In this document: piece after piece, positions 14,448-35,486 of the stretch
Position numbering within the stretch: the stretch's first letter is position 1
Layout of the letters: every line of letters starts with the position of its first letter
DNA from: Acidovorax sp. NB1
GTDB lineage: Bacteria; Pseudomonadota; Gammaproteobacteria; Burkholderiales; Burkholderiaceae_C
Length of the DNA stretch: 64,000 nt
NCBI RefSeq assembly: GCF_005405905.1
Contig: NZ_BJHU01000021.1
Coordinates: 186,001 to 250,000, forward strand
Reading direction: 5' to 3'
The notes under the pieces: generated by a model
The model's input: the letters and a program-made list of their open reading frames with translations, nothing else
Databases searched by the model: none
What the model was told of the DNA's origin: nothing
Position numbers and translations under genes: made by a program

Positions 14448-14460
14448 GGAAAAGAGCGCC

Positions 14461-15714
14461 ATGCGCGAAGACAAGAACGGGCCAGGACTGGTCCCTCGGC
14501 TGCGGTTCCCGGAATTTTTGAATGCTGGGCAGTGGAGTGCGCCAACGCTCGCAGACATTTCCACGCCAGTCGAGGAGCGCGTCGGCGACAGAACCCTCAC
14601 ACCAGTCAGCATCTCGGCAGGTATCGGATTTGTCCCGCAGGCCGAGAAGTTTGGCCGCGACATCTCGGGCAACCAATATCGGATGTATACCGTGGTACGA
14701 GACGGTGACTTTGTTTACAACAAGGGAAATTCACTCAAATTCCCTCAAGGATGCGTATACGACCTTCAGGGCTGGGGTGAAGCAGCTGCGCCTAACGTAT
14801 TTATCTGCTTCCGACCAAAAGCCGGGTATGAAAATAGCTTTTTGCGGCAGTGCTTTGAGCAAAATATTCATGGGATCCAGCTCAAAAAGAAGATTACCAG
14901 CGGCGCTCGAAGCAATGGCCTACTAAATATTAGCAAGGAAGCGTTTCTTGGGATAAAGATTCCGACACCCAGTCAAGCAGAACAGCGCCACATTGGTGAA
15001 TGCCTGTCTTCGCTGGATAACACGATTGCCGGAGAAGTCAAAAAGCTCGAAGCCCTCAGGCTGCATAAAGATGGCTTGATGCAAAGGCTTTTCCCGAGCA
15101 CTGAAAGATCTATCCCCGAGCTACGGTTTCCGGAGTTTGATGACGGTAGTGCCTGGCCAAAAGTTCCAGCTGGAGATGTTTTCACCAATCGGATCGAGCG
15201 CGGGAGATCTGATCTTCCAATTTACTCGGTAACGATGACTGACGGGATGGTCCCGCGCGCCTCGCTAGATCGAAAAATTGAAGATACAGCAGTGGCTGGA
15301 GTCAACAAGACGGCACGCGCAGGCGATATTGCTTACAACATGATGCGGATGTGGCAAGGCGCTTTAGGCGTTGCCCCTGAGAATTGCATGGTTAGCCCCG
15401 CGTACATTGTTCTTGAGCCACAAGGCATCAATCCATTCTTTTACTTTTATCTATTGAAGAAACCTCAACTCCTTCATATTCTAACTGCCCATTCAAGAGG
15501 CTTGACGGAGGATCGATTGCGGCTTTACTACGACGATTTTGCGAAGATTAAACTACCATGCCCCCCACTAGCTGAGCAAAATCGAATCGCGGACTGCCTG
15601 CTATCAGTCGACCAACTCATCACCGCCCAAATTAAACGAGTTAATGCGATCAAAACTCAAAAGAAGGGACTGATGCAGCGGCTCTTTCCCGACCTAAGCC
15701 GGGTGGGTGTATGA
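14461..15714 (+). CDS. hsdS: Type I restriction-modification specificity subunit
   Basis: About 417 residues with two target-recognition domains (about 10-180 and 225-390) separated by helical spacers. The halves end in the repeated segments DGLMQRLFP and KGLMQRLFP, the internal symmetry of HsdS. It sets the DNA site for both methylation and cleavage. The ATG at 14461 follows AAGGAA; upstream in-frame ATGs at 14431 and 14437 overlap hsdR. The domains are visibly richer in A+T than the flanking hsd genes, as often seen for horizontally exchanged HsdS modules. Confidence 0.93.
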   Translation: MREDKNGPGLVPRLRFPEFLNAGQWSAPTLADISTPVEERVGDRTLTPVSISAGIGFVPQAEKFGRDISGNQYRMYTVVRDGDFVYNKGNSLKFPQGCVYDLQGWGEAAAPNVFICFRPKAGYENSFLRQCFEQNIHGIQLKKKITSGARSNGLLNISKEAFLGIKIPTPSQAEQRHIGECLSSLDNTIAGEVKKLEALRLHKDGLMQRLFPSTERSIPELRFPEFDDGSAWPKVPAGDVFTNRIERGRSDLPIYSVTMTDGMVPRASLDRKIEDTAVAGVNKTARAGDIAYNMMRMWQGALGVAPENCMVSPAYIVLEPQGINPFFYFYLLKKPQLLHILTAHSRGLTEDRLRLYYDDFAKIKLPCPPLAEQNRIADCLLSVDQLITAQIKRVNAIKTQKKGLMQRLFPDLSRVGV

Positions 15715-16850
15715 AACAGGGCCAAACCTTCGCCGACTTGCCACAAGTGGCCTCGCATCTGCGCCGAGAACTGGAGAATAAAAAGACTATCGTCTTGTAT
15801 GCCTACAACGGCACTGGCAAGACGCGCCTGTCCATGGCCTTCAAGGACATTGGAAAACAAGGCGGCGCCAACGCAGAAGCGCGTGACACCCTGTACTTCA
15901 ATGCCTTCACCGAGGACCTGTTCCACTGGGATAACGACCTAGAGGGTGACAGCGACCGCAAGCTGACGCTGAACGCCAGCTCGCGCTTCTTCGCCGGCTT
16001 GGCAGAGTTGGAGATGGACAACCGCATCCGCCCGTTGCTGCAGCGCTATGCGGACTTTGACTTCCGCATCGACACCCAGGAATGGGCGGTGCGGTTTTCG
16101 CGCACAGTGGACGGGCAGGTCATCGACAACATCAAGGTCTCTCGTGGGGAAGAGAACATCTTTGTTTGGTGCTTCTTCCTCGCCGTCATGCGGCTGGCGA
16201 TGGACCCGGAGATTGAGGCTTACCGCTGGGTGAAGTACGTCTACATCGACGACCCGATTTCGTCGCTCGATGAGCACAACGCCATTTCGGTGGGCAACCA
16301 CTTGGCGCAGCTCTTGAACAAAGCAGACAACCCGCTGAAGGTCGTTATCTCGTCGCACCATCCGCTGTTCTTCAACGTGATGCACAACGAACTGGATGCG
16401 CGCAAGTCGAAGAAGGTCTCGGCGCACTTCTTGTCGCGATCCAAAACGGATGGTTCATACACCTTGGCCTACACCGGGGCGACCCCGTTCTTTCACCATG
16501 TGGCGGTGCTGACGGACCTGTACCAGGCGGCGCAATCGGGCGAGCTGTACACCTACCACTTCAACATGCTGCGCTCGGTGCTGGAGAAGTCAGCGAGCTT
16601 CCATGGCTTCTCGAAGTTCTCGGCCTGCATCCCAACCGACGATGCGGACGACCCGGAAGGCGTGCTGCATGCCCGGCTCATCAACATCCTGAGCCACGGC
16701 GACTATTCCTTGTTCGAACCCAAGCCGATGGGGGACGAGAACAAGGAGCACTTCAAGACGATTCTGAATGGCTTCCTGAGCCGTTACCCATTCAACCCCG
16801 ATTTGTTCTCCCAGCCTGCTCCGGCTGCCGCACCCGCAGGTACACCATGA
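15711..16850 (+). CDS. prrC: PrrC-family anticodon nuclease (latent tRNA-cutting toxin)
   Basis: A 379-residue protein with an ABC-type NTPase core: Walker A YNGTGKT (32-38), a signature-like SRGEEN (144-149) and Walker B VYIDDPISSLD (177-187). The C-terminal third has Arg288-x3-Glu292 (LRSVLEK) and His329 (ILSHGDY), matching the R-x3-E...H catalytic arrangement known for PrrC and RloC nucleases. Length is near that of PrrC (about 396) and lacks the long zinc-hook insert of RloC. In E. coli PrrC is held silent by its type I RM partner and cuts tRNA-Lys when a phage inhibitor disarms restriction. Here it lies between hsdS and hsdM with 4-nt overlaps on both sides, which supports the same logic. 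The tRNA target is unknown. Confidence 0.85.
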   Translation: MKQGQTFADLPQVASHLRRELENKKTIVLYAYNGTGKTRLSMAFKDIGKQGGANAEARDTLYFNAFTEDLFHWDNDLEGDSDRKLTLNASSRFFAGLAELEMDNRIRPLLQRYADFDFRIDTQEWAVRFSRTVDGQVIDNIKVSRGEENIFVWCFFLAVMRLAMDPEIEAYRWVKYVYIDDPISSLDEHNAISVGNHLAQLLNKADNPLKVVISSHHPLFFNVMHNELDARKSKKVSAHFLSRSKTDGSYTLAYTGATPFFHHVAVLTDLYQAAQSGELYTYHFNMLRSVLEKSASFHGFSKFSACIPTDDADDPEGVLHARLINILSHGDYSLFEPKPMGDENKEHFKTILNGFLSRYPFNPDLFSQPAPAAAPAGTP

Positions 16851-18454
16851 CCGATTACGAAAAGCAAAAACTAGGCAAGACCCTTTGGGCGATTGCGGAC
16901 CAACTGCGCGGTGCCATGAACGCGGACGACTTCCGCGACTACATGCTCGCCTTCCTGTTCCTGCGCTACCTCTCGGACAACTACGAGGCCGCCGCAAAGA
17001 AGGAACTGGGCCAAGACTACCCGAAGCAGATCGACGGTTCAGTCACTACGCCGCTGCAGCTTTGGTACGAGGCCAACGAAGGCGACGTGAAGGAGTTCGA
17101 GAAGCAGATGCGCCGCAAGGTGCATTACGTGATCGAACCTCAATACCTATGGGGCAACATCGCCGAGATGGCACGCACCCAAGATGCGATGTTGCTGAAC
17201 ACGCTTCAGCGCGGGCTGGGCTACATCGAGACTGAATCCTTCGCCAGCACGTTCCGGGGCTTGTTCTCTGAGATCAACCTGGCCTCGGACAAGCTGGGCA
17301 AGACGTACACGGAGCGCAATGCCCAGCTGTGCAAGATCATCAAGGAGATTGCAGACGGGCTGAGCCAGTTCTCGACTGACAGCGATACGTTGGGCGATGC
17401 CTACGAGTATCTGATCGGCCAGTTCGCAGCAGGCTCAGGCAAGAAGGCGGGCGAGTTCTATACCCCGCAGCCCATTTCCAGCATCCTGTCAGCCATCGTC
17501 ACGCTGGACGGGCAAGAGCCCGCCACGGGCCAGCGCTCGCACCTGGACAGCGTGTTGGACTTTGCCTGCGGGTCTGGTTCGCTGCTGCTGAACGTGCGCC
17601 ACCGCATGGGGCCGCACGGCATCGGCAAAATCTATGGGCAAGAAAAGAACATCACCACCTACAACCTGGCGCGCATGAACATGCTGCTGCATGGGGTGAA
17701 GGATTCGGAGTTCGACATCTTTCACGGCGACACCCTGCTCAACGAGTGGGATGACCTGCGTGAGACCAATCCGGCCAAGATGCCGAAGTTCGATGCGGTG
17801 GTGGCCAACCCGCCGTTCAGTTATCGCTGGGAGCCCTCGGAATCGCTCAGCGAGGACATGCGCTTCAAGAACTATGGCCTGGCGCCCAAGTCGGCTGCGG
17901 ACTTCGCATTCCTGCTGCATGGCTTCCACTTCCTGAAGCAGGACGGCGTGATGGCCATCATCCTGCCGCACGGGGTGTTGTTCCGTGGCGGCGCCGAGGC
18001 ACGCATCCGCACCAAGCTCCTCAAGGATGGGCACATCGACACGGTGATTGGCCTGCCGGCCAACCTGTTCTTCTCCACGGGTATCCCGGTCTGCATCCTG
18101 GTGCTGAAGAAGTGCAAAAAGCCGGACGACGTGCTGTTCATCAATGCCGCCGAGGAGTACGACAAGGCCAAGCGGCAGAACGTGCTCCAGCCTGAGCACA
18201 TCAACAAGATCATCGGCACCTACCAGTTCCGCAAGGAAGAGCAGCGCTACTCGCGCCGGGTGAGCATGGAAGAAATCGAGAAGAACGATTTCAACCTGAA
18301 CATCTCGCGCTATGTGAGCACTGCGGAAGACGAAGAAGAGATCGACCTGGCAAAGGTGCACGAGGAGTTGGTGGCTTTGGATCGGAAGATCAAGACCGCC
18401 ACACAGCAGCACAACGAGTTCCTCAAGGAGCTGGGGCTGCCATTGCTGCCCTGA
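16847..18454 (+). CDS. hsdM: Type I restriction-modification methyltransferase subunit
   Basis: A 535-residue N6-adenine methyltransferase. The SAM motif is VLDFACGSGSLLLN (Asp238 to Gly244) and the catalytic motif is NPPF (321-324). The N-terminal helical domain (YEKQKLGKTLWAIADQLRG) is typical of HsdM. Two copies combine with one HsdS to methylate, and HsdR is added for restriction. The start overlaps the anticodon nuclease stop by 4 nt (ATGA). Confidence 0.96.
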   Translation: MTDYEKQKLGKTLWAIADQLRGAMNADDFRDYMLAFLFLRYLSDNYEAAAKKELGQDYPKQIDGSVTTPLQLWYEANEGDVKEFEKQMRRKVHYVIEPQYLWGNIAEMARTQDAMLLNTLQRGLGYIETESFASTFRGLFSEINLASDKLGKTYTERNAQLCKIIKEIADGLSQFSTDSDTLGDAYEYLIGQFAAGSGKKAGEFYTPQPISSILSAIVTLDGQEPATGQRSHLDSVLDFACGSGSLLLNVRHRMGPHGIGKIYGQEKNITTYNLARMNMLLHGVKDSEFDIFHGDTLLNEWDDLRETNPAKMPKFDAVVANPPFSYRWEPSESLSEDMRFKNYGLAPKSAADFAFLLHGFHFLKQDGVMAIILPHGVLFRGGAEARIRTKLLKDGHIDTVIGLPANLFFSTGIPVCILVLKKCKKPDDVLFINAAEEYDKAKRQNVLQPEHINKIIGTYQFRKEEQRYSRRVSMEEIEKNDFNLNISRYVSTAEDEEEIDLAKVHEELVALDRKIKTATQQHNEFLKELGLPLLP

Positions 18455-18475
18455 CTCTCCGGAAAGGCCGACCGC

Positions 18476-19468
18476 GTGAGCTATCCCAAACCCTGGAAGA
18501 GCTATGCCGATCAACTGGACCAGTTGATCGGCCGGGGCATGGTCGTCACCGACCGTGCTCGGGCGCTGGACTACCTGGAGCGCATTGGCTATTACCGCCT
18601 CAGCGGCTACTGGTTCGCGTTCCGCGAACGCAGCGAGCCGTTATGCCTGTTGGATGAGCACGGTCGCAAGCCTAAGAAGGTGCGCGAAGAGCGCATCGCC
18701 CTTGATGCCTTCCGGGCTGGGACCACCTTCCAGAATGCGGTGGACCTGTACGTCTTTGACAAGCAGCTTCGGCTGCTGGTCATGGACGCATTGGAACGCA
18801 TCGAAGTCGCGCTGCGCGTGGACGTGTCCCACACCCTTGGGCAACTTGACCGCTTTGCCTACCTCAAGCCCGAGCTCTTCCACGACGAGTTCAGCGTCAA
18901 GCTGGACAAGGATTCCGGCCTCACCCGGCACCACGAGTGGCTGGGCAAGCATGCCCAGTTGATCGGCCGCTCCAGGGAAGAATTCGTTCGGCACAACCGG
19001 ACGAAATATGGCCTACCACTGGCAATCTGGGTGGCCTGCGAGGTGTGGGACTTCGGCACGCTTTCGACGCTGTTCAACGGCCTTCGCGAGGCCGAGCAAG
19101 ACGCGATTGCCAGCCAGTACGGCGTGAGCAACGGCCGGGTGTTCGCGACATGGCTGCGAAGCCTGAACTATCTGCGCAATGTCTGTGCGCACCACAGCCG
19201 TCTCTGGAATCGGAACATCGTCGATCAGCCGAAGCTGCCGTCGTCTGCAGAGCAGGCCTGGGTCACACCGTTTGAGACCGATGCGCACGCGCGGGCGCGC
19301 TGCTTCTTGCTCTTGAAGATCACCCGACATCTGCTGGGCGTGGTCAATCCTCGGTCGAGCTGGCCTGATCGGATGAAAGCGCATCTGCTCGCCTTCCCCG
19401 ATCTCTCTCACCTCGGCCTGAACCTGGCGGGCATGGGCGCCCCTGGTGCGTGGGAGGCAGACTGGTGA
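18476..19468 (+). CDS. Abi_2 family abortive-infection protein (HEPN-type)
   Basis: A 330-residue protein with a GTG start and the Abi_2 (AbiD/AbiF-like) layout: LDYLERIGYYRLSGYWFAFR near the N-terminus, FDKQLRLLVMDALERIEVALR in the middle, and a C-terminal R-x4-H motif, LRNVCAHHSRLWNR (Arg234, His239). That motif is the RNase signature of HEPN domains. Abi_2 proteins act in phage exclusion by cell suicide, probably by cutting RNA. It starts 21 bp after hsdM and may be part of the same transcript; a stem-loop follows its stop. Confidence 0.85.
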   Translation: MSYPKPWKSYADQLDQLIGRGMVVTDRARALDYLERIGYYRLSGYWFAFRERSEPLCLLDEHGRKPKKVREERIALDAFRAGTTFQNAVDLYVFDKQLRLLVMDALERIEVALRVDVSHTLGQLDRFAYLKPELFHDEFSVKLDKDSGLTRHHEWLGKHAQLIGRSREEFVRHNRTKYGLPLAIWVACEVWDFGTLSTLFNGLREAEQDAIASQYGVSNGRVFATWLRSLNYLRNVCAHHSRLWNRNIVDQPKLPSSAEQAWVTPFETDAHARARCFLLLKITRHLLGVVNPRSSWPDRMKAHLLAFPDLSHLGLNLAGMGAPGAWEADW

Positions 19469-19485
19469 GCACAGGCAATAAAAAA

Positions 19486-19528
19486 CCCCTCAGCAGCTTC
19501 TCTGCCGAAGCAGAGTCACCGAGAGGGG
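19486..19528. other. Nested stem-loop after the Abi_2 gene
   Basis: An outer stem CCCCTC (19486-19491) with GAGGGG (19523-19528) encloses a perfect hairpin CTCTGC-CGAA-GCAGAG (19500-19515). It ends the hsd-abi transcription unit or is a small structured RNA; there is no T run directly after it. Confidence 0.5.
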
Positions 19529-19634
19529 CCGTGTTGATACGAATTCTAGGCTACCGGGCCGGTACCGTCAACGCCCGTACTTGTCCGCAGACGTGCGCCA
19601 AGGACTAGGAAAGCGCGCAATTAGGGAGGAAAAG

Positions 19635-20675
19635 ATGGCAATTTGGTTGATTCGCGCTGGATCTCACGGCGAATACGAACAGAAGTTCATCCAGGAAGGT
19701 AGGGTCTATGTGACCTGGGATGAGCTGAACCTGGATCTGTCTAAGCTGCAGCAGCGAAGCGAGTTGACCGCTGAAATGACCCAGCGCTACCCGGAGGCTA
19801 AGCCCAAGGCTGTGCTGAACTGGGTCAGTCAGGTCTGGCCCTTCGCCCACGAGATGCAGAAGGGCGACCTCGTAGTGTTGCCCCTGAAGACGCAGCCTGC
19901 GGTCTACATCGGTGAGATCACGGGGGACTACCACGCCGAGACGGCTGGCCCGAACCCCTTCTTCCACTGGCGAGCTGTGAAGTGGATCGGCGAAGCCATC
20001 CCCCGGACGCACTTTGGCAAGGACCTGTTGTTTTCCTTCGGGGCGTTTCTCACCATCTGCCGTATCCAGCGCAACAACGCCGAGCAGCGCATCGCTGCCA
20101 TGCGCGCCCATGGGTGGAAGGCAGAAACGCTGGCAGCACCTGCCAAGGCAGCGACGGCAACGACCGCCGATGTCGAGGCCGCAGATGCCGACCTGGACGA
20201 GTTGGCACGCGACCAGATCGCCGCTCTTGTTGCTGCTCGCTTCAAGGGGCACGGCTTGACCCGACTGGTTGAGGGCATCCTGAAAGCCCAAGGCTACACC
20301 ACCTACCGCAGCCCGGAAGGAGCAGACGGCGGTGCAGACATCCTTGCAGGCTCTGGCCCCTTGGGGTTTTCCGCGCCGCGTCTGTGCGTGGAGGTGAAGT
20401 CTGAGGACTCGCCGATTGGCCGCGAGCCGGTGGACAAACTGCTGGGCGCCATGACCAAGTTCAATGCTGATCAGGGCCTGTTCGTGGCCTGGGGTGGCTT
20501 CAAGGGCAACGTGCAGAAGGAGCTGGCCTCCCAGTTCTTCCGGCTCCGGCTCTGGACGCAAAAGGAGCTGCTCGAACAGCTGTTCGAGCAGTACGAGCGT
20601 CTGGATGAAGACCTCAAGGCCGAGCTGCCACTGAAGCGGGTGTGGATGGTGGCATCGCAAGATGAGGTGCTTTGA
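19635..20675 (+). CDS. Mrr-like restriction endonuclease
   Basis: A protein of about 346 residues. The N-terminal domain (MAIWLIRAGSHGEYEQKFIQ, then VYVTWDEL; GDLVVLPLKTQPAVYIGEITGDY) resembles the small folds that read DNA in type IV enzymes. The C-terminal Mrr_cat domain has EGADGGADILAG (Asp235) and LCVEVKSED (Glu253-x-Lys255), the PD-(D/E)xK active site. Such enzymes cut modified DNA, for example methylated phage or plasmid DNA. The ATG at 19635 follows AGGGAGG; the in-frame ATG at 19581 has no ribosome site. Substrate is inferred from the family only. Confidence 0.8.
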   Translation: MAIWLIRAGSHGEYEQKFIQEGRVYVTWDELNLDLSKLQQRSELTAEMTQRYPEAKPKAVLNWVSQVWPFAHEMQKGDLVVLPLKTQPAVYIGEITGDYHAETAGPNPFFHWRAVKWIGEAIPRTHFGKDLLFSFGAFLTICRIQRNNAEQRIAAMRAHGWKAETLAAPAKAATATTADVEAADADLDELARDQIAALVAARFKGHGLTRLVEGILKAQGYTTYRSPEGADGGADILAGSGPLGFSAPRLCVEVKSEDSPIGREPVDKLLGAMTKFNADQGLFVAWGGFKGNVQKELASQFFRLRLWTQKELLEQLFEQYERLDEDLKAELPLKRVWMVASQDEVL

Positions 20676-21133: not shown

Positions 21134-22393
21134 ATGGCCAATCCCCGTTCGTTGGTCTACGCCTTGTACAACCATTGGGACACCGTCGAGGTCCTGGTGA
21201 GGTTGTCCCGCGAGTTTGCGGTGCTCACCACCGAACAAGTGCTGGGCTGCATCGCGAAGGTGGCACCGCAGCTGGATGCCGAGGCACAGGGGGCAGCCCT
21301 TCGCGCCATGGTGAATGCAGACATCCTCCAACCCTGCGCCCGCAGCAGCGACCTGCAGCTCAATGCGTACGTGCTGGACTTCGTGCGCGGGCTGACTCGC
21401 GAGCACGAGCTCGGTCTGGCTGCGGTGCTTCAAGCACGCGTTGCTGCCATCCGCGAGGCCACGGAGGCTCTCAACGAGGGCATGCAGGCTGCCGACATGG
21501 ATCGGACGCGGGGGGCTGCCAACAAGCTCGCTGAACTCTTCCGCCAGATCAGCCTGCAACTGGATCAAGACCGCCACGCACTGCTGGAACTTGCCGAAGA
21601 CGCCAAGAGCGCCGACGCCAGCATGCCCATCGCCCAGCGCTACCGGCGTGTGCTGGAGGCCTATGACCACTACGTGGAGCCGATGAACCAGATGATGGAC
21701 ACCGGCCCGCAAGGCACGTTTTACCGTTACCTGGAAGACGCCGAACGCTCGCTCGATCTCGCCTTTGAGCAGCTGTCGGTTCAAGGCGGGCTGTACTCGC
21801 ATCGCCTGCAGCTCAGGCAGGTGGCGCACCAGGCCAAGGAGCTGCGGCGATTTGGCCGTCTGATCGCTCAACAGTGCGCCGACACGGTGCTGCCGTTGCG
21901 CGAGGAGATGCGTCAACACAATGCGCTGACCAGTGCCGTCAGCCTGCTGCTGGGCCAAGTTCGCAAACGGGGCCTGCGCAGAGCCTTGTCGCGGCATACC
22001 GTCGGCACCGAGATGCCCGTTTGGCGCAATGAGCGGGGCTTCCGCCTGCAGCTGGGCGATGAGGTGCGCACCGTGATGGCCGCAGCGCAGCAGTACCAAC
22101 CGCAGTCGGTGGCCTTCCCGCAAGATGACCCTGGCAACGCCCCGCCGCTGCTGGAGCACGTGGACGAGGTGGGCATCCGGCAGCAGCTGAGAAGCAGCCT
22201 CCCGGTGGACAACCTGCTGGACTGGCTGCATACCCATCACGGTCATCTGCAGGATGCGACGCTGCTGCGGCTGTTCCATGAGCTGCAGCACGAGGGCAGT
22301 TGGCAGATCGAAGCCAGTGCGCATCCTGAGACCACCACTTTGCAGACCATCCGCGTGCTGCACCATCCTCACCGCGTGAGCATTCCGGAATGA
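21134..22393 (+). CDS. jetA: Wadjet JetA (MukF/MksF-like kleisin)
   Basis: A 419-residue protein with an N-terminal winged-helix-like region (SRSEFAVLT-type segment LSREFAVLTTEQVL), a long helical middle (about 95-290) and a C-terminal region (LLDWLHTHHGHLQDATLLRLF) consistent with a second winged helix. This is the kleisin layout of MukF-type subunits, which bridge the SMC heads. Recognition rests mainly on its place as the first gene of a four-gene operon with MukE-, MukB- and TOPRIM-like products. The stop overlaps the next start by 4 nt. Confidence 0.82.
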   Translation: MANPRSLVYALYNHWDTVEVLVRLSREFAVLTTEQVLGCIAKVAPQLDAEAQGAALRAMVNADILQPCARSSDLQLNAYVLDFVRGLTREHELGLAAVLQARVAAIREATEALNEGMQAADMDRTRGAANKLAELFRQISLQLDQDRHALLELAEDAKSADASMPIAQRYRRVLEAYDHYVEPMNQMMDTGPQGTFYRYLEDAERSLDLAFEQLSVQGGLYSHRLQLRQVAHQAKELRRFGRLIAQQCADTVLPLREEMRQHNALTSAVSLLLGQVRKRGLRRALSRHTVGTEMPVWRNERGFRLQLGDEVRTVMAAAQQYQPQSVAFPQDDPGNAPPLLEHVDEVGIRQQLRSSLPVDNLLDWLHTHHGHLQDATLLRLFHELQHEGSWQIEASAHPETTTLQTIRVLHHPHRVSIPE

Positions 22394-23001
22394 CAACGCC
22401 TCATCCACTGACGCCGCAACTGGCGCAGATGCCAGCACTGGCCGAGCTCTTCCGCTTGTTCATGTCCGGCAAGCACCTGAACCGCATGGCCGAGCCCGCA
22501 CTTTGGGCCGAACTTGAGCAGCACGAACCGGCCTACGCAGGTCTTTTCGCAGCGCTGGGCTTTGAGCTGCGCGTGGATGCGCGAGGCTTTGCTTGGTTCC
22601 ACAGCACCGATGCCAGCAGCAACATCGGCAAGGTCAGCCGTCAACTGGCGCTGCTGTTCATGGTCATCTTCGACGCCCAAGCCAATGCCGGCAAAGCGCT
22701 ACAACGCTTCACTGACTGGCTCGTTGATCGGGAATGGCTGGCCGAGGTGCACGAACAGCAGAAAGACCTACTGGACGCCGAAGGGCTGTCTCCCGATGGG
22801 CTGATCGATCTGCTGGGCCGCGCCTGCACGCTGGGATTCGCAGTGGCGGAGCCGGCAGGCTGGCGCCTGTTGCCCGCCGTCTGCCGCTACCTGGACCACT
22901 TTGAGGGCCTGGCCGCAGCCTCCCGAGATGACGACAACGAGGCGGACGCTGCCCCTGAGGAGAGCGGCGACGAGGTGCTGAACGACGAGGAGGGCGACTG
23001 A
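22390..23001 (+). CDS. jetB: Wadjet JetB (MukE/MksE-like)
   Basis: A 203-residue protein starting MTTPHPLTPQLAQMPALAEL, with LFRLFMSGKHLNR and a compact helical body, then an acidic tail (EADAAPEESGDEVLNDEEGD). MksE-like proteins (about 200-230 residues) dimerise on the kleisin and help shape the SMC motor. Overlaps jetA by 4 nt and shares its last base with the jetC start, indicating a coupled operon. Confidence 0.82.
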   Translation: MTTPHPLTPQLAQMPALAELFRLFMSGKHLNRMAEPALWAELEQHEPAYAGLFAALGFELRVDARGFAWFHSTDASSNIGKVSRQLALLFMVIFDAQANAGKALQRFTDWLVDREWLAEVHEQQKDLLDAEGLSPDGLIDLLGRACTLGFAVAEPAGWRLLPAVCRYLDHFEGLAAASRDDDNEADAAPEESGDEVLNDEEGD

Positions 23002-25754
23002 TGCAGCACGGCTTTCAACGCCTGGTTTTGCTTGGCAGCGCAGGCTACTCCCGCGCCGAGCTTCCGCTGGATGGCGCAGTCTCCCTGGTGGCGCCCAACA
23101 ACACGGGCAAGACCAGCCTGATCAATGCCCTGCAGTTCCTGCTGATCATTGACCGGCGCCGCATGGACTTTGGCGCGCACGACGTGGAGAAGAGCCGGCG
23201 GTTTTACTTCCCCAACAACAGCGCCTATGTGCTGCTGGAGGTGTCGTTGCCGGAATCCGGCACCGTGGTGCTCGGGTGTGTCGGCAAGGGTGTGAGCTTC
23301 GAGTACGAGTACTTTGCCTACGCCGGCCCGCTCAAGGTGGAAGAGTTCTGCCTGCCCGATGGCTCGCTTGTGGCACAGCCCAAGCTGGCCAGCCATCTGG
23401 CCACCCATGGGCGCCGCGTGTTCAGCTACAGCGGCAGCGAGTTCGCCGACATGGTGTATGGCGGCCGGAATCGCAAGCTCAGCGGATCACAAGACTTCTG
23501 CGTGTTCCGCCTGGAGCACGCCAGTGACGCCAGCGTCTTCCAGCGTGTGCTCACCCGGACGCTGCGGCTGGACAAGCTGCGGTCCAGCGAGGTGAAAGAC
23601 TACCTTCTGCAAATCTTCCGGCGTGATCTGCCGGATGCCAGCATCGACTTCAAGGCGGAGTGGGACAAGGCCTTTGCCGACCTCAACGCGGAGCGCAGTC
23701 AATACCTGGCCGCCGAACGCCTCAAAGGCAGCCTCGCTGAACTGGAGCGCAAGCAAGATGCTCGACTGACCCTGCGCGGCAAGCTGCTGTGCTGGCGGCC
23801 CATGATCGACGAGGCCCTGTGCCAGTGGCAGCAGCACTTCGAGTCACGCCAGCAAGCCCTTCAGCACGAGCTGCAGCAGTGCGATGGCGAGCTGGACCGC
23901 TTGCGAGAGCAGGATCGCCAGGCCGTGCGGGAGCAGAGCCAGTGGGAGCTGGAGCAGAAGCAACTGCGCCAGGAGCGCCAACAGCTGCAAGCATTGCAAC
24001 AGCGATTCGCTCTGGTGGAAAGCCGGGCGGTTCTGGAGACGTGCCGCCGCGACGTGCAGGCACAACGAGATGCTCTGGTGGTCCGCTTGGGCCAAGCGCA
24101 AAGCCGGCCACCGGCATCCATCGAACGCGATCTCTCCCGTGTGGACAGAGAGCTGGCCCAGCTGACACAGGAGATGCGCACCCAAGGCCACAACCTCTAC
24201 CAGCAGCTGGCAGGCGCTTTGCCGCCCGATCAATTGGCGGCGCTGAACAAGGTGCTGGCCAGACCCGTGCTGACCTTGGGCGCCGAAGACTTCCAGCTCG
24301 ATGGCCAGGCGCTCTCCAAGGCTTTGGGAGATGCCAATGGTGAGCATGCTGGCCTGCCGGGCCTGCAGCTGCGCGTCGCCGCCCTGCCTGAGCAGCACCA
24401 ACAGCGCGGCCTGGCCGAGCTGGGCGAGCTGCTGCGGGATTTGCAGCAACAGCAGGTGCAGCTGAAAGAGCAGCTGGAGACGGCACAAGCGCTGGCACTT
24501 GTCCAACGCGAACGTGATGGATTGGAACAGCAGCTTGTGCAGCTGGACGCCGAGTTGCGGGACTACAGCCAGTTGCAGGCCCTGCAAGGCAGCGACGCTG
24601 CGCGGCAAGCACGGCTTGTGACACTCGACCAGAAGCTCGCCGAGCTGGCCACCAGTTTGGCGCAATCGGCTGCCCGGTACCGGGCGCTGGATCAGCAGCG
24701 TCAACAGAGGCAGAAGGATCTGGATTCACTCGGGCAACAACACCGGCAGATCGAGCAACGCCGCAACCAACGCATCGATCAGGAAGGCCCGTTCACCTGG
24801 CTGTCCGACTCACCCCACCACCCCTGGTTGGCGCAGCCGGAGTTCGCGCTGGAACAGCTGGCCGAGCGCCTGCAGACCTATCAGGCTGACTGCCGCCAAT
24901 TGCTGGAACTGGACGACCAGATCCGCCGACTGCTGGGCGAAATCCACACGGGCGGGCTCACCAAGTACCAGTTCGTCGGTGAGCCCGAGGCAGAAATCGC
25001 GCGCCTGGTGGAGTTCGCCCATCACCTGCCTCAGGAGGCTGAGGCCCTGGAAAAGAAGGTGCGGTCGGCGGTGGTGAATGTGGCCGCTTGCCTGCGCGAA
25101 CTGCGCGATGGCTTGGCCGCCTTCAAACGCCGGATGCGCGAGTTCAACCGCAAGATCAGCGGGCGCCAGCTCTCCGATCTGGCGGTCTTCAAGATCGAAC
25201 CCGAAGACGAAACCGCGCTTGTCGAGGCCATCGAGCTGCTCATCAGCACGGCTGCCACAGTCGGCAATGGCGAGACCTTCGAGCTCTTCAACCAGCAGAG
25301 CGTGCTGGATGATGACCAGCTCAACCGTGCCAAGACCCTGCTCATCGAGGAAGGCAACGCCCGCCACGGTTTGCGCGTGGCCGACCTGTTCCGTCTGCGC
25401 TTCTGGGTGGGCAAGGCGGGTCGCGAGCCGGAAGCCTTTGATGACCTCGACAGCGCCGCCTCGAACGGGACGGTGCTGATGGCCAAGCTGGTGACGGGCT
25501 TGGCGATGCTGCACCTGATGCAGGATCAGCGGCGCCCGATCCAAGGCATTTGCTATTTGGACGAAGCCCTGGCGCTGGATGCGCGCAACCAGCGCAGTCT
25601 GATCGAGACCGCTGCCGAGTTCGGCTTCTCGCTGATCTTCGCCTCCCCGGCGCCGCTGACCACCGTGCGCTACTGCGTGCCCATTCATCATCGGCAGGGC
25701 AGCAACCAGATCAGCCGCTTCAGCTGGCAGATCATCGAACCCGTGGAGGCCTGA
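23001..25754 (+). CDS. jetC: Wadjet JetC (MukB/MksB-like SMC ATPase)
   Basis: A 917-residue SMC-type protein. Walker A is APNNTGKTS (31-39) and Walker B is ICYLDEALALD (850-860, Asp854-Glu855). Between them is a long coiled coil rich in Gln, Leu, Arg and Glu (about residues 225-640), with a likely hinge in the less charged stretch near residues 400-440. The motor extrudes DNA loops and in Wadjet measures small circular DNA for cleavage. It is shorter than MukB (about 1480 residues), as for MksB/JetC proteins. Its stop overlaps the jetD start (TGATG). Confidence 0.9.
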   Translation: MQHGFQRLVLLGSAGYSRAELPLDGAVSLVAPNNTGKTSLINALQFLLIIDRRRMDFGAHDVEKSRRFYFPNNSAYVLLEVSLPESGTVVLGCVGKGVSFEYEYFAYAGPLKVEEFCLPDGSLVAQPKLASHLATHGRRVFSYSGSEFADMVYGGRNRKLSGSQDFCVFRLEHASDASVFQRVLTRTLRLDKLRSSEVKDYLLQIFRRDLPDASIDFKAEWDKAFADLNAERSQYLAAERLKGSLAELERKQDARLTLRGKLLCWRPMIDEALCQWQQHFESRQQALQHELQQCDGELDRLREQDRQAVREQSQWELEQKQLRQERQQLQALQQRFALVESRAVLETCRRDVQAQRDALVVRLGQAQSRPPASIERDLSRVDRELAQLTQEMRTQGHNLYQQLAGALPPDQLAALNKVLARPVLTLGAEDFQLDGQALSKALGDANGEHAGLPGLQLRVAALPEQHQQRGLAELGELLRDLQQQQVQLKEQLETAQALALVQRERDGLEQQLVQLDAELRDYSQLQALQGSDAARQARLVTLDQKLAELATSLAQSAARYRALDQQRQQRQKDLDSLGQQHRQIEQRRNQRIDQEGPFTWLSDSPHHPWLAQPEFALEQLAERLQTYQADCRQLLELDDQIRRLLGEIHTGGLTKYQFVGEPEAEIARLVEFAHHLPQEAEALEKKVRSAVVNVAACLRELRDGLAAFKRRMREFNRKISGRQLSDLAVFKIEPEDETALVEAIELLISTAATVGNGETFELFNQQSVLDDDQLNRAKTLLIEEGNARHGLRVADLFRLRFWVGKAGREPEAFDDLDSAASNGTVLMAKLVTGLAMLHLMQDQRRPIQGICYLDEALALDARNQRSLIETAAEFGFSLIFASPAPLTTVRYCVPIHHRQGSNQISRFSWQIIEPVEA

Positions 25755-26620
25755 TGACGGAGCAGGCCCTGCGCGCGGCGTTGCTCAAGCTGCAAGGCAA
25801 AAGCACCTTACCCGCCAGCCAGTTCACCGCTGCACAGCGCATGGCTCTGGATCAATTTGCCCGGCGAACAGGTGCCGTGAACTGTCTGCGCCAGGGCCGA
25901 GGAGACGTGTACAGCGTTTGCGATCAGGCGGTGTTCGACACTCACGTCTCGCAGCTCTCTCCTCGGCTTGAGCCGTCTATCGCCGAACAACTGCCTCTGC
26001 GCGCACAGCACGTGGCCCATGCCCGCGACAGCAAAGCCCGGCGTCATCAACACGGCAGCTATTACCCGCTGCTCAAGGCGGTCGGCGACGCGGTCAGCTG
26101 GCATGAGGCCGAAGGAGGCTCGGAGTTGGTACTGAGTGCTGCCACACGCGACTTCGGTGCGGCCTCACTATGCATTCAGTCAGATGACGCTTGGCACTCC
26201 GAGCAAGCGCTCTGGCTCGTCGAGAACCAAGCCTTGTTTGATCGCACGGACTGGCTGCCCGAAGGCACGCAGGCCTCGCTGCTGTACTACGGAGGGCAGC
26301 TCGACGGCAGGCTACTGTCGTGGCTGGGTCATCGCCCCCGTGCCAGCCAGGTCATCCTTTTTGCCGACTATGACGGCGTGGGCCTGAGCAATTTCGCGCG
26401 ACTTCGTGAAGCGCTGGGCGATGCTTGCGATTTCTGGCTGATGCCGCAGTGGGAAGCCAAGCTGGCGCGCTATGGCAGCGTGCAGCTATGGCGGGACACC
26501 TTGCGCCACTTCACCAAGGCCGTGGCGCAACTACCAGCGCCCGTGCGCGAGCTGACCGAGCAGATGCAACACCTGGGGATGGCACTGGAGCAGGAAGCGG
26601 TCTGGCTGCCCTCGTCCTAG
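25754..26620 (+). CDS. jetD: Wadjet JetD (TOPRIM nuclease)
   Basis: A 288-residue protein whose C-terminal half is a TOPRIM domain: LVENQ (Glu157) and FADYDGVG (Asp205-x-Asp207...Gly210). In Wadjet, JetD cleaves the circular plasmid after the SMC complex has extruded it. The ATG at 25754 overlaps the jetC stop; frame continues upstream in an antisense-like way and is not used. The protein looks compact for the family, so the N-terminal arm may be reduced. It is convergent with the following regulator gene with only an 18-bp gap. Confidence 0.85.
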   Translation: MTEQALRAALLKLQGKSTLPASQFTAAQRMALDQFARRTGAVNCLRQGRGDVYSVCDQAVFDTHVSQLSPRLEPSIAEQLPLRAQHVAHARDSKARRHQHGSYYPLLKAVGDAVSWHEAEGGSELVLSAATRDFGAASLCIQSDDAWHSEQALWLVENQALFDRTDWLPEGTQASLLYYGGQLDGRLLSWLGHRPRASQVILFADYDGVGLSNFARLREALGDACDFWLMPQWEAKLARYGSVQLWRDTLRHFTKAVAQLPAPVRELTEQMQHLGMALEQEAVWLPSS

Positions 26621-26638: not shown

Positions 26639-27397
26639 TCAGCCAGGTTTGGCTTTGCCTGGACGGGGGAAGTCGTCTTCATCGAGACGCATCGTCTCGA
26701 TCTTTAACGCCAATTGCGTGGGGCTCAACCCCCTGCGCATCGCACTGCGCAAGCTCACCTCCAAGATGCGCCAGCCCAACGAGTCGCCGTTCGTGAGCAC
26801 AAAGTCCTGCCCAGGCGGCGCTCCAAGGCGTTGCATGAAGCCATGGGCCAGTTCGCCAGTGGGGATCTCCTGCCCACCCTGCTCGGCGAGGCTCAAGAGC
26901 GCAGAAGCGGTCGCTTGCGGGTCTTGCGTGGGGATGCCTTCCAGCGCAACGGGCAGCACGATCATTCGGTCGGGGCTGACCATCGCGGCCAAATCGTCCT
27001 GCGCAGTCGGCCCCGGCGTGAGAGACAGCCGAACCCATGCCTCGCCCCACTGCAGGAATCTTGTATGGGACATGCCAGGATGCTCATCGAGAAACAAGCA
27101 TCGGGGCGCCACTGGCGCCTGGAGCAGGTTGAAAACGGTGCGCAGGTGTGCCCATTCACCTTGGTCGCTCCAGGTGTGCACCATGTCCGACCGAAGCTGC
27201 CCCCCTTGGACACCCAGGTGGTAAAGCAACGCCGTCACGCGCGCCGCAGAGATGACCTGCGGTCTGCCTTTAAGCCATGCAGACAGGTTGGCCGCGCGAA
27301 TGCCCGTGGCGTCAAACACCGCTGCCAACGTGAGGCCTCGCAGACGCAAGAGCGCGCCGGCCAGTATGGGGAGTTGCTCGCTGCTCAAGGCAGACAT
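26639..27397 (-). CDS. Helix-turn-helix regulator divergent from the Lon-like ATPase gene
   Basis: A protein of about 252 residues with an N-terminal helix-turn-helix (LTLAAVFDATGIRAANLSAWLKGRPQVIS) and a C-terminal region of unknown fold. The ATG at 27397 follows GGAGG; an in-frame GTG at 27418 has no such site. It is divergent from the AAA+ gene across a 119-bp gap that holds a 14-bp inverted repeat, so it probably regulates both genes. No effector-binding domain is recognised. Confidence 0.65.
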   Translation of the reverse strand: MSALSSEQLPILAGALLRLRGLTLAAVFDATGIRAANLSAWLKGRPQVISAARVTALLYHLGVQGGQLRSDMVHTWSDQGEWAHLRTVFNLLQAPVAPRCLFLDEHPGMSHTRFLQWGEAWVRLSLTPGPTAQDDLAAMVSPDRMIVLPVALEGIPTQDPQATASALLSLAEQGGQEIPTGELAHGFMQRLGAPPGQDFVLTNGDSLGWRILEVSLRSAMRRGLSPTQLALKIETMRLDEDDFPRPGKAKPG

Positions 27398-27420
27398 GTC
27401 CGCCTCCAAAAGAATCACAG

Positions 27421-27516: not shown

Positions 27517-29115
27517 ATGACTCGTCCTAACAGCCGTCGCCCCATGAGCCGCGCCGCCTACCAAGCGAGCCTGGCAGCCTTGAAAGCCGAGCACCCATGG
27601 CTGGACAAGCAGGTGGTGGAGCCCGCCCCTGGCCACCTGGCGGTACTGGCCCATTTCGTAGGTCAGTGCGAGCTGCTGATGAAGCCGGCCGACTACCGCC
27701 ACCTGCCGCTGTTTTGCGCCACCAACCAGCGCGACAAGCTCAGCCTGCGGGTGGAACTGGTGGGCGCCAGCGTGAACAGGGACAGGGCTTTGTTGGATCT
27801 GATCGAGGCCGCCCGACATTCCGCCCAACAACATTGCCCGGTTTGCTCGGCGCCCGTGATTGGCGGCGATGCGAACGCAGGCCTGGGAGTCCGCTGCAAG
27901 CAGCACGAGGCCACCATCGGCCTATTCGCCGAAGACCTCAAGCGCAATCACAAACTCGCGGTAGCGGCAGGGCTACTGCCGGCCGCCACCAAGCCCGAGA
28001 AGTCGGTACGTGGCGAGCCGCTCGATCCGTCCATCGACGATGCAGTACACGCGCTGGTGCAGTCGCTGCCCGACATGAAGCCACCGGCAGCGGCGCCGGA
28101 TCAGCCCGCGCCGCAGGCACCTCGGGCAACACCCCAAATCGCGTTTCTTGACGCCGCAGGCCTGCGCAGCTTTGTCGAGCGCCACCGCGCCAAGCCCGAC
28201 GAGAAGGCCAAGCGGGCCCAGTACATCGCCGAGCGCATCAGGGCCGCTGGCCACGAACGCCGCAAGCTGGGTGAGCTACCCGATGACTGGACAGAGCTGA
28301 TCGAAGACTTCCAGCGCGACTTCCCCAACTTCGCTGAGCTGGCCGAGGTACTGCACGACCACTTCGCCCTGCATGCGATGGGCGATGGCCGCGTGGCATG
28401 GTCGCCTATCCTGCTGGTCGGAGCTGCCGGGATTGGCAAGACAGAGGCCGCCCGCTGGCTGGCTGCGCGGCTGAGCCTTCCCTTCCGTGTGATCGACATG
28501 GCCAGCACCCAATCCAGCTCACCGCTGGCGGGATCGGAATCGTTCTGGTCGAACTCGGAGCCCGGCGTGGTGTTTGAGCTGCTGGCCTACCAGCCGCTGG
28601 CCAATCCGGTGATCGTGCTGGACGAGCTCGACAAGACCGACCAGCAACGTCAGTACGACCCGCTCGCGGCGCTCTACACCCTGCTGGAACCTCGCAGTGC
28701 ACGCGACTTCATCGACCTTTCGATTCGCGACTTTGCCATCGACGCCAGCCACGTGAACTGGATCGCCACGGCCAACAGCATCGAGAGCATCCCTGCACCG
28801 CTGCTGTCGCGCATGACGGTGCTGCATGTGCAGGCCCCGACGGCCGCACAGATGGCTCACATCGCTCAACAGATTTATGGGCGCATGCGGGCTGAGAGTC
28901 CATGGGGTGGGGCCTTTGAGCCAGCACTGGATGAGCAGGTTGTGGATCGACTCAAAGGACTTCCGCCGCGTAGCCTTGGGATGACGCTGAAGCGAGCACT
29001 CGGCAAAGCAGCCCGCGCCGAGCGCTGCCGGATCTTGTCTGAAGACCTCCCACAGGCATCGTGTGAGGTGAGGAGAAGCATTGGGTTTACGGCGGTAGTC
29101 TCCAAGCCAGCCTAA
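27517..29115 (+). CDS. Zinc-ribbon, Lon-like AAA+ ATPase without protease domain
   Basis: A 532-residue protein. A zinc ribbon is likely at Cys107, Cys110, Cys127 and His130 (CPVCSAPVI; GVRCKQHE). The AAA+ domain (about 290-510) has Walker A GAAGIGKT (302-309), Walker B IVLDELDK (366-373), sensor-1 IATANS (Asn420) and an arginine finger in LLSRM (Arg432). The order LDELDK, DPLAALYTLLEP, FIDL, ATANSIESIPAPLLSRM is like the Lon ATPase module, but no Ser-Lys protease domain follows. The function is unknown; the place between Wadjet and the ImmA/IrrE cassette suggests defence. Confidence 0.7.
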   Translation: MTRPNSRRPMSRAAYQASLAALKAEHPWLDKQVVEPAPGHLAVLAHFVGQCELLMKPADYRHLPLFCATNQRDKLSLRVELVGASVNRDRALLDLIEAARHSAQQHCPVCSAPVIGGDANAGLGVRCKQHEATIGLFAEDLKRNHKLAVAAGLLPAATKPEKSVRGEPLDPSIDDAVHALVQSLPDMKPPAAAPDQPAPQAPRATPQIAFLDAAGLRSFVERHRAKPDEKAKRAQYIAERIRAAGHERRKLGELPDDWTELIEDFQRDFPNFAELAEVLHDHFALHAMGDGRVAWSPILLVGAAGIGKTEAARWLAARLSLPFRVIDMASTQSSSPLAGSESFWSNSEPGVVFELLAYQPLANPVIVLDELDKTDQQRQYDPLAALYTLLEPRSARDFIDLSIRDFAIDASHVNWIATANSIESIPAPLLSRMTVLHVQAPTAAQMAHIAQQIYGRMRAESPWGGAFEPALDEQVVDRLKGLPPRSLGMTLKRALGKAARAERCRILSEDLPQASCEVRRSIGFTAVVSKPA

Positions 29116-31898: not shown

Positions 31899-32366
31899 TC
31901 ATCCCCGCTGGTGTGCCTGCCCACAGGTATGGCAGAACCAAGTGTTCTGCCACTGGCGCTTCGCGGCACTGTATGCCTTCGCCTGGGCATGCCAGCCCTT
32001 CATCAGCAGCCAGCCCAGCGCGATGAGTCCCACGCCGACTGCCGCTTGCTTCCAGTTGTAGCGCAGGCCCGCCAGTCCGACGTACACGCACTCACGCGCC
32101 AACAACGGGCACACAGTCATCGACATGTAGATGATGATGCCGCCAATCCCATAGGCTCCAATGAACGGCAGAGGTGATGGCGGCGCAGGTGGAGCGCAGT
32201 GCTGGGCCAGCGCCGTGGACTGCGAGCCCTGGCTGCTACCTTGAACGAACTGCCCATCTGAAGTGACCGCCGTGTGCGTTGCGTGGAACTGCTGCGTGCC
32301 GCCTGCATGCACGACAGCCATCGGCTGAATGTGCGTGCCGCCACAACTCGGGCATTGCATCGCCAT
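31899..32366 (-). CDS. Membrane protein with zinc-ribbon ends
   Basis: A 155-residue protein starting MAMQCPSCGGTHIQPMAVVH. A CxxC pair at the N-terminus and another at the C-terminus (WFCHTCGQAH) could form one zinc site. Two hydrophobic segments, FIGAYGIGGIIIYMSMTVC and AAVGVGLIALGWLLMKGW, predict membrane insertion. It lies 2 bp downstream of the lipoprotein gene, so the two are co-transcribed. Function unknown. Confidence 0.6.
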   Translation of the reverse strand: MAMQCPSCGGTHIQPMAVVHAGGTQQFHATHTAVTSDGQFVQGSSQGSQSTALAQHCAPPAPPSPLPFIGAYGIGGIIIYMSMTVCPLLARECVYVGLAGLRYNWKQAAVGVGLIALGWLLMKGWHAQAKAYSAAKRQWQNTWFCHTCGQAHQRG

Positions 32367-32368
32367 GG

Positions 32369-33934: not shown

Positions 33935-34109
33935 CTGGTAGAAGACGGTAGAGGCTGCGCGGCCAGCCGGAAACCGTTGTGCCAGTTGGTCTTTCAGCAA
34001 GCGTGACGGAACGCCATCCCGACGGATCGGAAAGTCATCCCGATGGCGCGGCATGCCATCCCGAACAGCATGGAACGCTATCCCGATGCCTGCCCCCGAG
34101 TTATCCACA
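33908..34109. other. Candidate replication origin: four iterons and DnaA boxes
   Basis: Four direct repeats with consensus CGGAAnGCCATCCCGA have cores CATCCCGA at 34015, 34036, 34057 and (as TATCCCGA) 34079, at 21, 21 and 22 bp spacing. A consensus DnaA box TTATCCACA is at 34101-34109, and a one-mismatch box CTATCCACA is at 33908-33916. The element also encodes a TrfA-like initiator, which acts on iterons. Sequence match of iterons to this initiator is not established. Confidence 0.65.
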
Positions 34110-35223: not shown

Positions 35224-35234
35224 ACGTCTCCCTG

Positions 35235-35261
35235 ATGGCCCAATGGCCCAAGAATGGCCCA
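35235..35261 (+). repeat. TGGCCCA repeats near attR, candidate integrase arm sites
   Basis: Three copies of ATGGCCCA in 27 bp; the 19-bp part ATGGCCCAAGAATGGCCCA (35243-35261) is identical to 8230-8248 near attL. The copies lie just before the integrase start, so binding could also regulate its gene. Confidence 0.65.
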
Positions 35262-35312
35262 AATAATCAGGAACCACGTTAAACCACCAGTAAAAACGGC
35301 ACAAGGGCCAAG

Positions 35313-35359
35313 CGTTCGGGACGTAGAGGCCGGAGGTTCGAATCCTCTCACCCCGACCA
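35313..35359 (+). repeat. attR: 47-bp copy of the tRNA-Pro 3' end
   Basis: Exact copy of 8089-8135. It marks the right border of the element. The chromosomal sequence resumes at 35360. It is not a tRNA gene: the 5' half is absent. Confidence 0.95.
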
Positions 35360-35486
35360 CAAATCAATCGCACGCGCATTTGCGCCGCCTGTGGCGCGGT
35401 TACCAATATCCAGCGCTGTACACCCTCTGTGCGATCGGTGATGATAGGATGGTTTCTTCTCCACACCTAACACATATACCGGTTAC

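What the first reader, a model, noticed from the sequence alone, without database searches (positions are those of the whole stretch)
21134..26620. Complete Wadjet operon carried by a plasmid-like element
jetA-jetB-jetC-jetD are coupled by overlaps of 1-4 nt. JetC has SMC Walker motifs and coiled coil; JetD has TOPRIM Glu157 and D205-x-D207. Known: Wadjet destroys small circular plasmids. Inference: the element encodes an initiator and iterons, so its own circular form should be at risk. Possible answers are the large size (27 kb), regulation of the operon, or use only in the integrated state against rivals.
Basis: partly seen in the sequence, partly recalled or inferred. Interest (0 to 1): 0.78.

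Follow-up and report, generated by a model that had tools for sequence, protein, structure and literature searches.

The report
Plasmid-cutting SMC operon on plasmid-like island
A mobile DNA island that carries its own plasmid replication origin also carries four genes for a machine of the kind that finds and cuts small circular DNA, so its own free circle should be a target, which makes it a clean test of how such machines spare their carrier.

Summary
The operon is real: four genes at 21134-26620 overlapping by 4, 1 and 1 nt, kept by purifying selection. It matches none of the three Wadjet types in PADLOC. JetABC resemble the three-subunit Mks condensin; JetD is a DUF7281 protein whose E157, D205 and D207 are invariant in 25 of 25 sequences and whose predicted catalytic domain matches solved MksG (Z 13.4) and JetD (Z 12.5). 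It is best called MksBEF plus a TOPRIM nuclease: a Wadjet-like variant.

The carrier is a 27,224-bp island in tRNA-Pro with identical 47-nt ends; 33 of 46 congeners show the empty site. It holds a TrfA-type initiator, four iterons and a DnaA box; the same iteron motif lies beside trfA on a free 27-kb Xanthomonas plasmid. The operon is cargo: 6 of 10 related islands hold it.

Size is a poor shield: sized jet-bearing islands are 27-53 kb, and Wadjet reportedly takes circles below about 50-100 kb. Three four-gene plasmid homologues sit on 156-190-kb plasmids. Most likely the operon works from the chromosome against small rival plasmids and is silent or tolerated while the island is circular. Anti-plasmid activity is inferred, not shown.

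The parts
8059..8135 (+). tRNA-Pro (CGG), the integration target; its 3' part 8089-8135 is attL
   Evidence: ARAGORN; 47/47 repeat
8595..8975 (+). small AlpA-like DNA-binding ORF of the left core (name is a guess from sequence; no Pfam hit)
   Evidence: no Pfam hit; conserved at this position in relatives
8979..9908 (+). TrfA-type replication initiator
   Evidence: PF07042 1.1e-10; 52-54% identical to trfA of 15-30-kb plasmids
9893..11014 (+). unknown ORF (373 aa) always beside the initiator slot
   Evidence: no Pfam/PHROG hit; 43-69% identical in relatives
11451..20675 (+). other defence cargo: hsdR, hsdS, PrrC-like ATPase, hsdM, AbiD, Mrr-type PDC-S02 nuclease
21134..22393 (+). JetA / MksF-like kleisin, 419 aa
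   Evidence: NCBIfam NF040857 1e-33, far below its equivalog cut-off
22390..23001 (+). JetB / MksE KITE subunit, 203 aa
   Evidence: PF21980 MksE 4.5e-33, over cut-off
23001..25754 (+). JetC / MksB SMC ATPase, 917 aa
   Evidence: NCBIfam NF040859 9.6e-98, below its equivalog cut-off; Walker A, signature, Walker B
25754..26620 (+). JetD / MksG-like TOPRIM nuclease, 288 aa, DUF7281
   Evidence: PF23947 5e-9; E157/D205/D207 in 25 of 25; predicted domain Z 13.4 to 8b7f, 12.5 to 7til
26639..27418 (-). HTH regulator of the element core
   Evidence: HTH_26; also present in islands without jet
27517..29115 (+). AAA+ ATPase of the element core
   Evidence: PF00004 8e-14; also in islands without jet
31899..33547 (-). 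two core ORFs of unknown function (31899-32366 and 32369-33547)
   Evidence: conserved in relatives; the second has no match in 72,556 plasmid records
33635..33934 (+). XRE-type regulator of the right core
   Evidence: PF01381 3.8e-11
34007..34086 (+). four iteron-like 16-nt repeats, spacing 21, 21, 22
34101..34109 (+). TTATCCACA, a perfect DnaA box (consensus recalled) 14 nt after the last iteron
34111..35466 (-). tyrosine integrase (the real start is probably inside attR or later)
   Evidence: PF00589 1e-23
35313..35359 (+). attR, 47-nt copy of the tRNA-Pro 3' end

Best explanation
The operon encodes an Mks-type SMC motor (kleisin JetA, KITE JetB, SMC JetC) armed with a TOPRIM nuclease (JetD) that, like Wadjet/MksBEFG, extrudes circular DNA until it stalls and then cuts it. 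It is cargo of a 27-kb integrative element with an SGI1-like life style: it sits in tRNA-Pro, can excise, and carries a TrfA/iteron replicon. From the integrated state the operon removes small and medium plasmids that compete with the island or burden the host; very large plasmids, including any large conjugative helper, are spared by size. During the brief circular stage the island avoids self-cutting by not expressing the operon, or by integrating before the complex builds up. Shown here: operon, fold and residues, purifying selection, integration site, replicon, cargo status. Inferred: nuclease activity, plasmid target, circular stage, silence of the operon in the circle.
For: Subunit identity. 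Active-site residues 25 of 25. TOPRIM model pLDDT 91.5, Z 13.4 to MksG 8b7f, 12.8 to Topo VI A, 12.5 to JetD 7til. Profile link DUF7281 to JetD_C: hhalign probability 84.5%, E 6.9e-6; a plasmid homologue (Halioglobus, L131) matches both DUF7281 1.7e-11 and, just under cut-off, JetD_C 3.6e-4. Constraint. Integration; 33 of 46 congeners have one contiguous match across the joined flanks, while the own genome matches in two pieces. Replicon: TrfA; iterons plus DnaA box conserved in G182 and L010; same motif, 5 copies, beside trfA of X. albilineans plasmIII. Islands with RepA_C in the initiator slot (G093, G204, G565) lack these iterons. Size: sized jet-bearing islands are 27.2, 27.0 and 52.8 kb, a fourth about 36 kb on two contigs.
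Against: No activity data. Proteins lie outside curated Wadjet models. JetABC resemble a condensin that in Pseudomonas works in chromosome segregation (PMC10586767), so a chromosomal role with the nuclease as an accessory is possible. A type III Wadjet deletion in Cupriavidus had no plasmid phenotype (PMC12645576). No promoter seen by a simple scan. No relaxase or transfer gene was recognised among the element ORFs scanned with Pfam, so mobilisation by a helper is conjecture. The core ORF 32369 finds no plasmid in PLSDB, so a free form has not been seen.
Confidence: 0.6

Rival explanations
1. The complex is mainly a chromosome-organising condensin like Pseudomonas MksBEF, and JetD is a rarely used or regulatory subunit; the island gains by stabilising itself or its host, not by killing plasmids.
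For: JetA and JetC match the Mks condensin models NF040857 and NF040859 and JetB matches MksE; matches to Wadjet JetC models are weak, best 6e-6.
Against: JetD is co-translated, keeps all catalytic residues and is under purifying selection; the operon is patchy (8 of 399 genomes of the order) and sits in a defence cluster on a mobile island, unlike a housekeeping condensin.
Confidence: 0.2
2. Anti-phage rather than anti-plasmid: the complex cuts circularised or otherwise odd phage DNA, acting with the neighbouring hsd, PrrC, AbiD and Mrr genes.
For: Neighbours are anti-phage type genes.
Against: Solved relatives MksG and JetD belong to anti-plasmid systems (PMC10123090, PMC10586767, passages).
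Confidence: 0.12
3. The circular stage is irrelevant: the element moves only by whole-chromosome transfer or transduction and its replicon is a relic, so there is no self-risk.
For: No plasmid record carries the core ORF 32369; no transfer genes recognised.
Against: Initiator, iterons and DnaA box are conserved with a relative (77.7% TrfA, G182); the initiator slot is filled by either TrfA or RepA_C; ends are 47/47 identical in all four islands whose two ends were held on one contig.
Confidence: 0.2

Closest known systems
Mks condensin MksBEF (Pseudomonas type; NCBIfam NF040857-NF040859, Pfam MksE)
   Same: Kleisin, KITE and SMC subunits in the same order; best sequence models for JetA, JetB, JetC.
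   Different: The 16 above-cut-off copies found (unnamed family f55, presumably Pseudomonadaceae) and G802 show no DUF7281 gene within the ~1.5 kb flanks held, some of them cut by contig ends; the window operon adds the nuclease. Below the equivalog cut-offs.
MksBEFG / Wadjet type I (JetABCD)
   Same: Gene order, four subunits, TOPRIM fourth subunit with E and DxD residues; fold match to 8b7f and 7til.
   Different: No match to PADLOC JetA, JetB or JetD models; JetC only 6e-6. JetD has DUF7281, not DUF3322/JetD_C.
CBA-D operons with a ~1230-aa DUF3584 SMC and DUF7281
   Same: Same nuclease family DUF7281.
   Different: Gene order C-B-A-D and a much longer SMC; separate SMC clade. Not detected by PADLOC in the one operon scanned (L074) and two proteins of a second (L071).
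SGI1-family integrative mobilisable elements
   Same: Chromosomal island with its own rep gene and iteron origin; initiator slot filled by RepA_C or TrfA in different members (PMC7433901 abstract; PMC9035990 passages).
   Different: SGI1 sits at the 3' end of trmE and depends on IncC AcaCD; this one sits in tRNA-Pro; no such dependence tested.

Membership tests
Wadjet type I-III (PADLOC models) | JetA, JetB, JetC, JetD match the type models | tested here: not met
   At E <= 0.001: JetA, JetB, JetD 0 families; JetC weak JetC1 hits, best 6e-6, beside LmuB and others. Positive control: 3 of 3 type I JetD domains hit JetD1 at 1e-68 or better.
Wadjet type I-III (PADLOC models) | TOPRIM nuclease as fourth subunit with the catalytic E and DxD | tested here: met
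Wadjet type I-III (PADLOC models) | Restriction of small circular plasmids | not testable with these tools
   Needs cells or purified complex.
MksBEF(G) | MksE, MksF and MksB homologues in one operon | tested here: met
   PF21980 over cut-off; NF040857 1e-33, NF040858 3e-21, NF040859 1e-97, none over its equivalog cut-off.
MksBEF(G) | SMC Walker A, signature and Walker B intact | tested here: met
MksBEF(G) | MksG-type nuclease fold | tested here: met
   Z 13.4, rmsd 3.0, 154 residues to 8b7f; Foldseek E 0.011, probability 1.00. The full-length model (pLDDT 71) matched only winged-helix proteins through its N-terminal domain.
Integrative element in tRNA-Pro | Direct repeats, integrase, empty site in relatives | tested here: met
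TrfA/iteron replicon | Initiator, iterons and DnaA box | tested here: met
   The X. albilineans plasmid shares the iteron motif; the Thiothrix plasmid (TrfA 54%) does not and has its own 22-bp repeats.
TrfA/iteron replicon | Autonomous replication | not testable with these tools
   Needs a mini-replicon assay.
SGI1 family | Integration at the 3' end of trmE | tested here: not met
   Site is tRNA-Pro.

The most novel reading that the evidence does not exclude
The island uses an armed Mks condensin as a size filter: it destroys small rival plasmids but spares very large conjugative plasmids that could mobilise it, and switches the filter off, or outruns it, during its own 27-kb circular replicating stage. 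The nuclease-less condensin of Pseudomonas and this island operon would then be sister forms of one machine, with and without the nuclease.
Probability: 0.3. Interest if true: 0.75.

Novelty: new variant of a known kind. Interest (0 to 1): 0.55.

Why it matters
A size-sensing plasmid destroyer on a DNA element whose own circle falls inside the reported target size is a natural test of self-tolerance by SMC immunity. The operon also places a TOPRIM nuclease beside an Mks condensin, which bears on the published suggestion that Pseudomonas MksBEF came from a nuclease-bearing ancestor (PMC10586767, passages); my tree could not tell loss from gain. Defence catalogues that rely on the present Wadjet models would miss it, and probably its C-B-A-D cousins.

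Tried and rejected
Direction of nuclease gain or loss. An SMC tree of 28 rows (8 of 16 near-identical f55 rows dropped beforehand) puts 11 nuclease-bearing rows in one clade (SH-aLRT 100) and 8 f55 rows in another (100), but G802 (no nuclease) and G307 (distant, nuclease) have long, unresolved branches. Rejected as evidence either way.

Full-length JetD model. Mean pLDDT 71; its fold search returned only winged-helix regulators. Replaced by the domain model. Sequence searches of the four proteins against PDB found no Wadjet or Mks chain.

HTH regulator and AAA ATPase as part of the jet system. Rejected: both are present in the jet-less islands G182, G481 and G525.

Positive selection on JetD. 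JetD is more diverged than JetABC in the pairs compared with the window (for example 75% against 96% for G093), but its dN/dS stays at 0.12-0.34 and DNA identity drops sharply at the jetC-jetD border in G093 and G204, so recombination explains it better.

Plasmid sizes as proof of self-protection. JetC relatives are on 5 of 72,556 plasmid records, all 156-972 kb. Three of them cover the whole protein and have four genes; the two Pseudomonas records matched only 25-32% of the query and were not examined. Type I JetD: 10 records, 8 of 186 kb or more, 2 of 42 and 60 kb. A sample of 60 of 1,466 plasmids with hsdR: 16 at 150 kb or more, 26 under 100 kb. Fisher p 0.0025 (5 of 5), 0.002 (8 of 10), 3e-5 (13 of 15) for 150 kb or more; 0.04 for under 100 kb. 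Suggestive only: host groups differ and the two small type I plasmids go against it.

Promoter and terminator scan upstream of jetA: nothing. Two primary Wadjet papers were not held; the size limits come from passages of the review PMC10586767 and of PMC12375680. Paper searches; DUF7281 occurred in none of the papers listed. I found no paper on this island type in those listings, which does not show there is none.
Full report
What is there. The window holds a four-gene operon at 21134-26620: jetA 21134-22393 (419 aa), jetB 22390-23001 (203 aa), jetC 23001-25754 (917 aa) and jetD 25754-26620 (288 aa), overlapping by 4, 1 and 1 nt. JetC keeps Walker A, the SNGT signature and Walker B; the K, SNGT and DE positions are shared by the 29 SMC proteins aligned. 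Of 56 dN/dS values over 14 genome pairs and four genes, 55 lie between 0.06 and 0.36; the one outlier (1.93) rests on a dS of 0.01. The operon is maintained.

Which family. Against PADLOC, which has Wadjet types I-III, JetA, JetB and JetD match nothing at E 0.001 and JetC only weakly (JetC1 6e-6, LmuB 8e-8); type I JetD domains from relatives hit their models at 1e-68 or better, 3 of 3. NCBIfam puts JetA, JetB and JetC nearest to the Mks condensin (NF040857 1e-33, NF040858 3e-21, NF040859 1e-97), all below the equivalog cut-offs; Pfam calls JetB MksE, over cut-off, and JetD DUF7281, over cut-off. So the motor is Mks-like and the fourth subunit is a different family from the DUF3322/JetD_C nuclease of type I.

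Is JetD a nuclease of the MksG/JetD kind? In 25 diverse DUF7281 proteins, E157, G181, D205, D207, G210, P231 and Q280 are invariant. The predicted domain (residues 105-288, pLDDT 91.5) matches C. glutamicum MksG 8b7f (Z 13.4, rmsd 3.0, 154 residues), Topo VI A 1d3y (12.8) and P. aeruginosa JetD 7til (12.5), above the next group at 7.0, after the other Topo VI and Spo11 chains. Foldseek puts Topo VI A first (E 3.7e-4), with 8b7f at E 0.011 and 7til at 0.016. Profile comparison with 12 JetD_C domains gives probability 84.5%, E 6.9e-6, and 67% with the full-length alignment. A homologue on a Halioglobus plasmid matches DUF7281 (1.7e-11) and, just below cut-off, JetD_C (3.6e-4). I read this as good evidence for the fold and active site; cleavage is inferred.

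Relatives of the operon. JetC at E 1e-20 is in 8 of 399 genomes of the order: seven besides the window, of which G307 is distant (23%). A 92%-identical JetD occurs in an Acidovorax MAG and in Parachitinimonas caeni, among 4 loci found; the latter contig has the length and matches of G565, so I treat them as one. In the phylum sample the SMC model NF040859 matches 19 of 398 genomes: 16 above cut-off in one unnamed family (f55, presumably Pseudomonadaceae) plus G802, G814 and the window. DUF7281 lies just after the SMC gene in G814 and the window, and was not found in the ~1.5-kb flanks of the other 17, a few of which are cut by contig ends. DUF7281 also serves a second kind of operon, SMC of about 1230 aa, then B, A and D, in congeners and Gammaproteobacteria.

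The carrier. The 3' end of tRNA-Pro(CGG) at 8089-8135 is repeated, 47 of 47 nt, at 35313-35359, 27,224 bp away, next to a tyrosine integrase. Joining the flanks gives one contiguous match across the junction in 33 of 46 other species of the genus; 8 more match in part and 5 not at all; the own genome matches in two pieces. Four islands with both ends on one contig have the identical 47-nt ends: window 27,224 bp, G093 27,032, G204 52,815 and G182 21,610 bp; G565 is about 36 kb over two contigs. G182 has no jet.

Cargo or core? Ten genomes carry the right-hand core (AAA ATPase at 50% identity or more, or core ORF 32369 at 60% or more): G000, G093, G182, G197, G204 and G411, G481, G507, G525, G565 (a weak partial hit in G536 was dropped). 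Six have jetABCD; G182, G411, G481 and G525 have none in the 52-58 kb read. Identity between islands is high across jetABC and falls at the jetC-jetD border in G093 and G204 (about 90-93% to 78%) and upstream of jetA, so the operon recombines between islands.

The replicon. The initiator is TrfA-type (PF07042 1.1e-10) and 52-54% identical to trfA of free plasmids of 15-30 kb. Four 16-nt repeats with spacing 21, 21 and 22 lie at 34007-34086, followed by TTATCCACA at 34101. The expectation for the iteron pattern (0.02) is not an independent test, as the pattern was drawn from the sites; conservation is: G182, which has TrfA at 77.7%, and L010 keep repeats and box. X. albilineans plasmIII has five copies of the motif (12-13 of 16 matches, spacing 21-24) directly after trfA; the Thiothrix plasmid has a different repeat. 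In G093, G204 and G565 the slot is filled by a RepA_C initiator (G204 by near-identity to G093) and these iterons are absent. The same swap of RepA_C and TrfA is described for SGI1-related islands (PMC9035990, passages), and SGI1 replicates as a plasmid after excision (PMC7433901, abstract).

The paradox. A review states that circles above about 100 kb escape Wadjet, that targets are below 50-100 kb, that Wadjet operons sometimes lie on plasmids, and that most work was on type I (PMC10586767, passages). The 27-kb circle is inside that range, so size alone does not protect it if this variant behaves like type I. In public plasmids the relatives sit on large records (5 of 5 at 156 kb or more; type I 8 of 10 at 186 kb or more, with two of 42 and 60 kb) against 16 of 60 for an hsdR sample; host bias is not excluded. 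The integrated state, with the operon silent or outrun in the circle, is the reading I favour. No promoter was recognised.

Verdict. The operon is a complete, conserved MksBEF-plus-nuclease variant of the Wadjet kind on an SGI1-like island. The anatomy is well supported; function and self-tolerance are inference. A negative precedent exists: deleting a predicted type III Wadjet in Cupriavidus necator changed neither electroporation nor plasmid stability (PMC12645576, passages).

Noticed in passing
L074:4313-10707, L071:5172-11660, L114, L116-L119, L121, L122: C-B-A-D operons with a ~1230-aa DUF3584 SMC and a DUF7281 nuclease; in the one operon (L074) and two L071 proteins scanned, PADLOC found nothing. 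Looks like an uncatalogued Wadjet-like type.
   Followed up: partly
window 25754-26620 and G093/G204: DNA identity drops sharply at the jetC-jetD border: the nuclease gene appears to be exchanged separately from jetABC.
   Followed up: partly
window 8979-9908 and relatives G093, G204, G565: The initiator slot of this island family holds TrfA with iterons or RepA_C without them.
   Followed up: partly
window 9893-11014: Unknown 373-aa ORF always beside the initiator slot in the islands where that end was read; no family hit.
   Followed up: no
window 15711-16850: PrrC-like ATPase gene nested between hsdS and hsdM, the classic anticodon-nuclease arrangement (recalled); this protein is short (379 aa).
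   Followed up: no
NCBIfam NF040857 and NF040859: Names look swapped: the 412-position model called MksB matches the kleisin-sized protein and the 926-position model called MksF matches the SMC.
   Followed up: no
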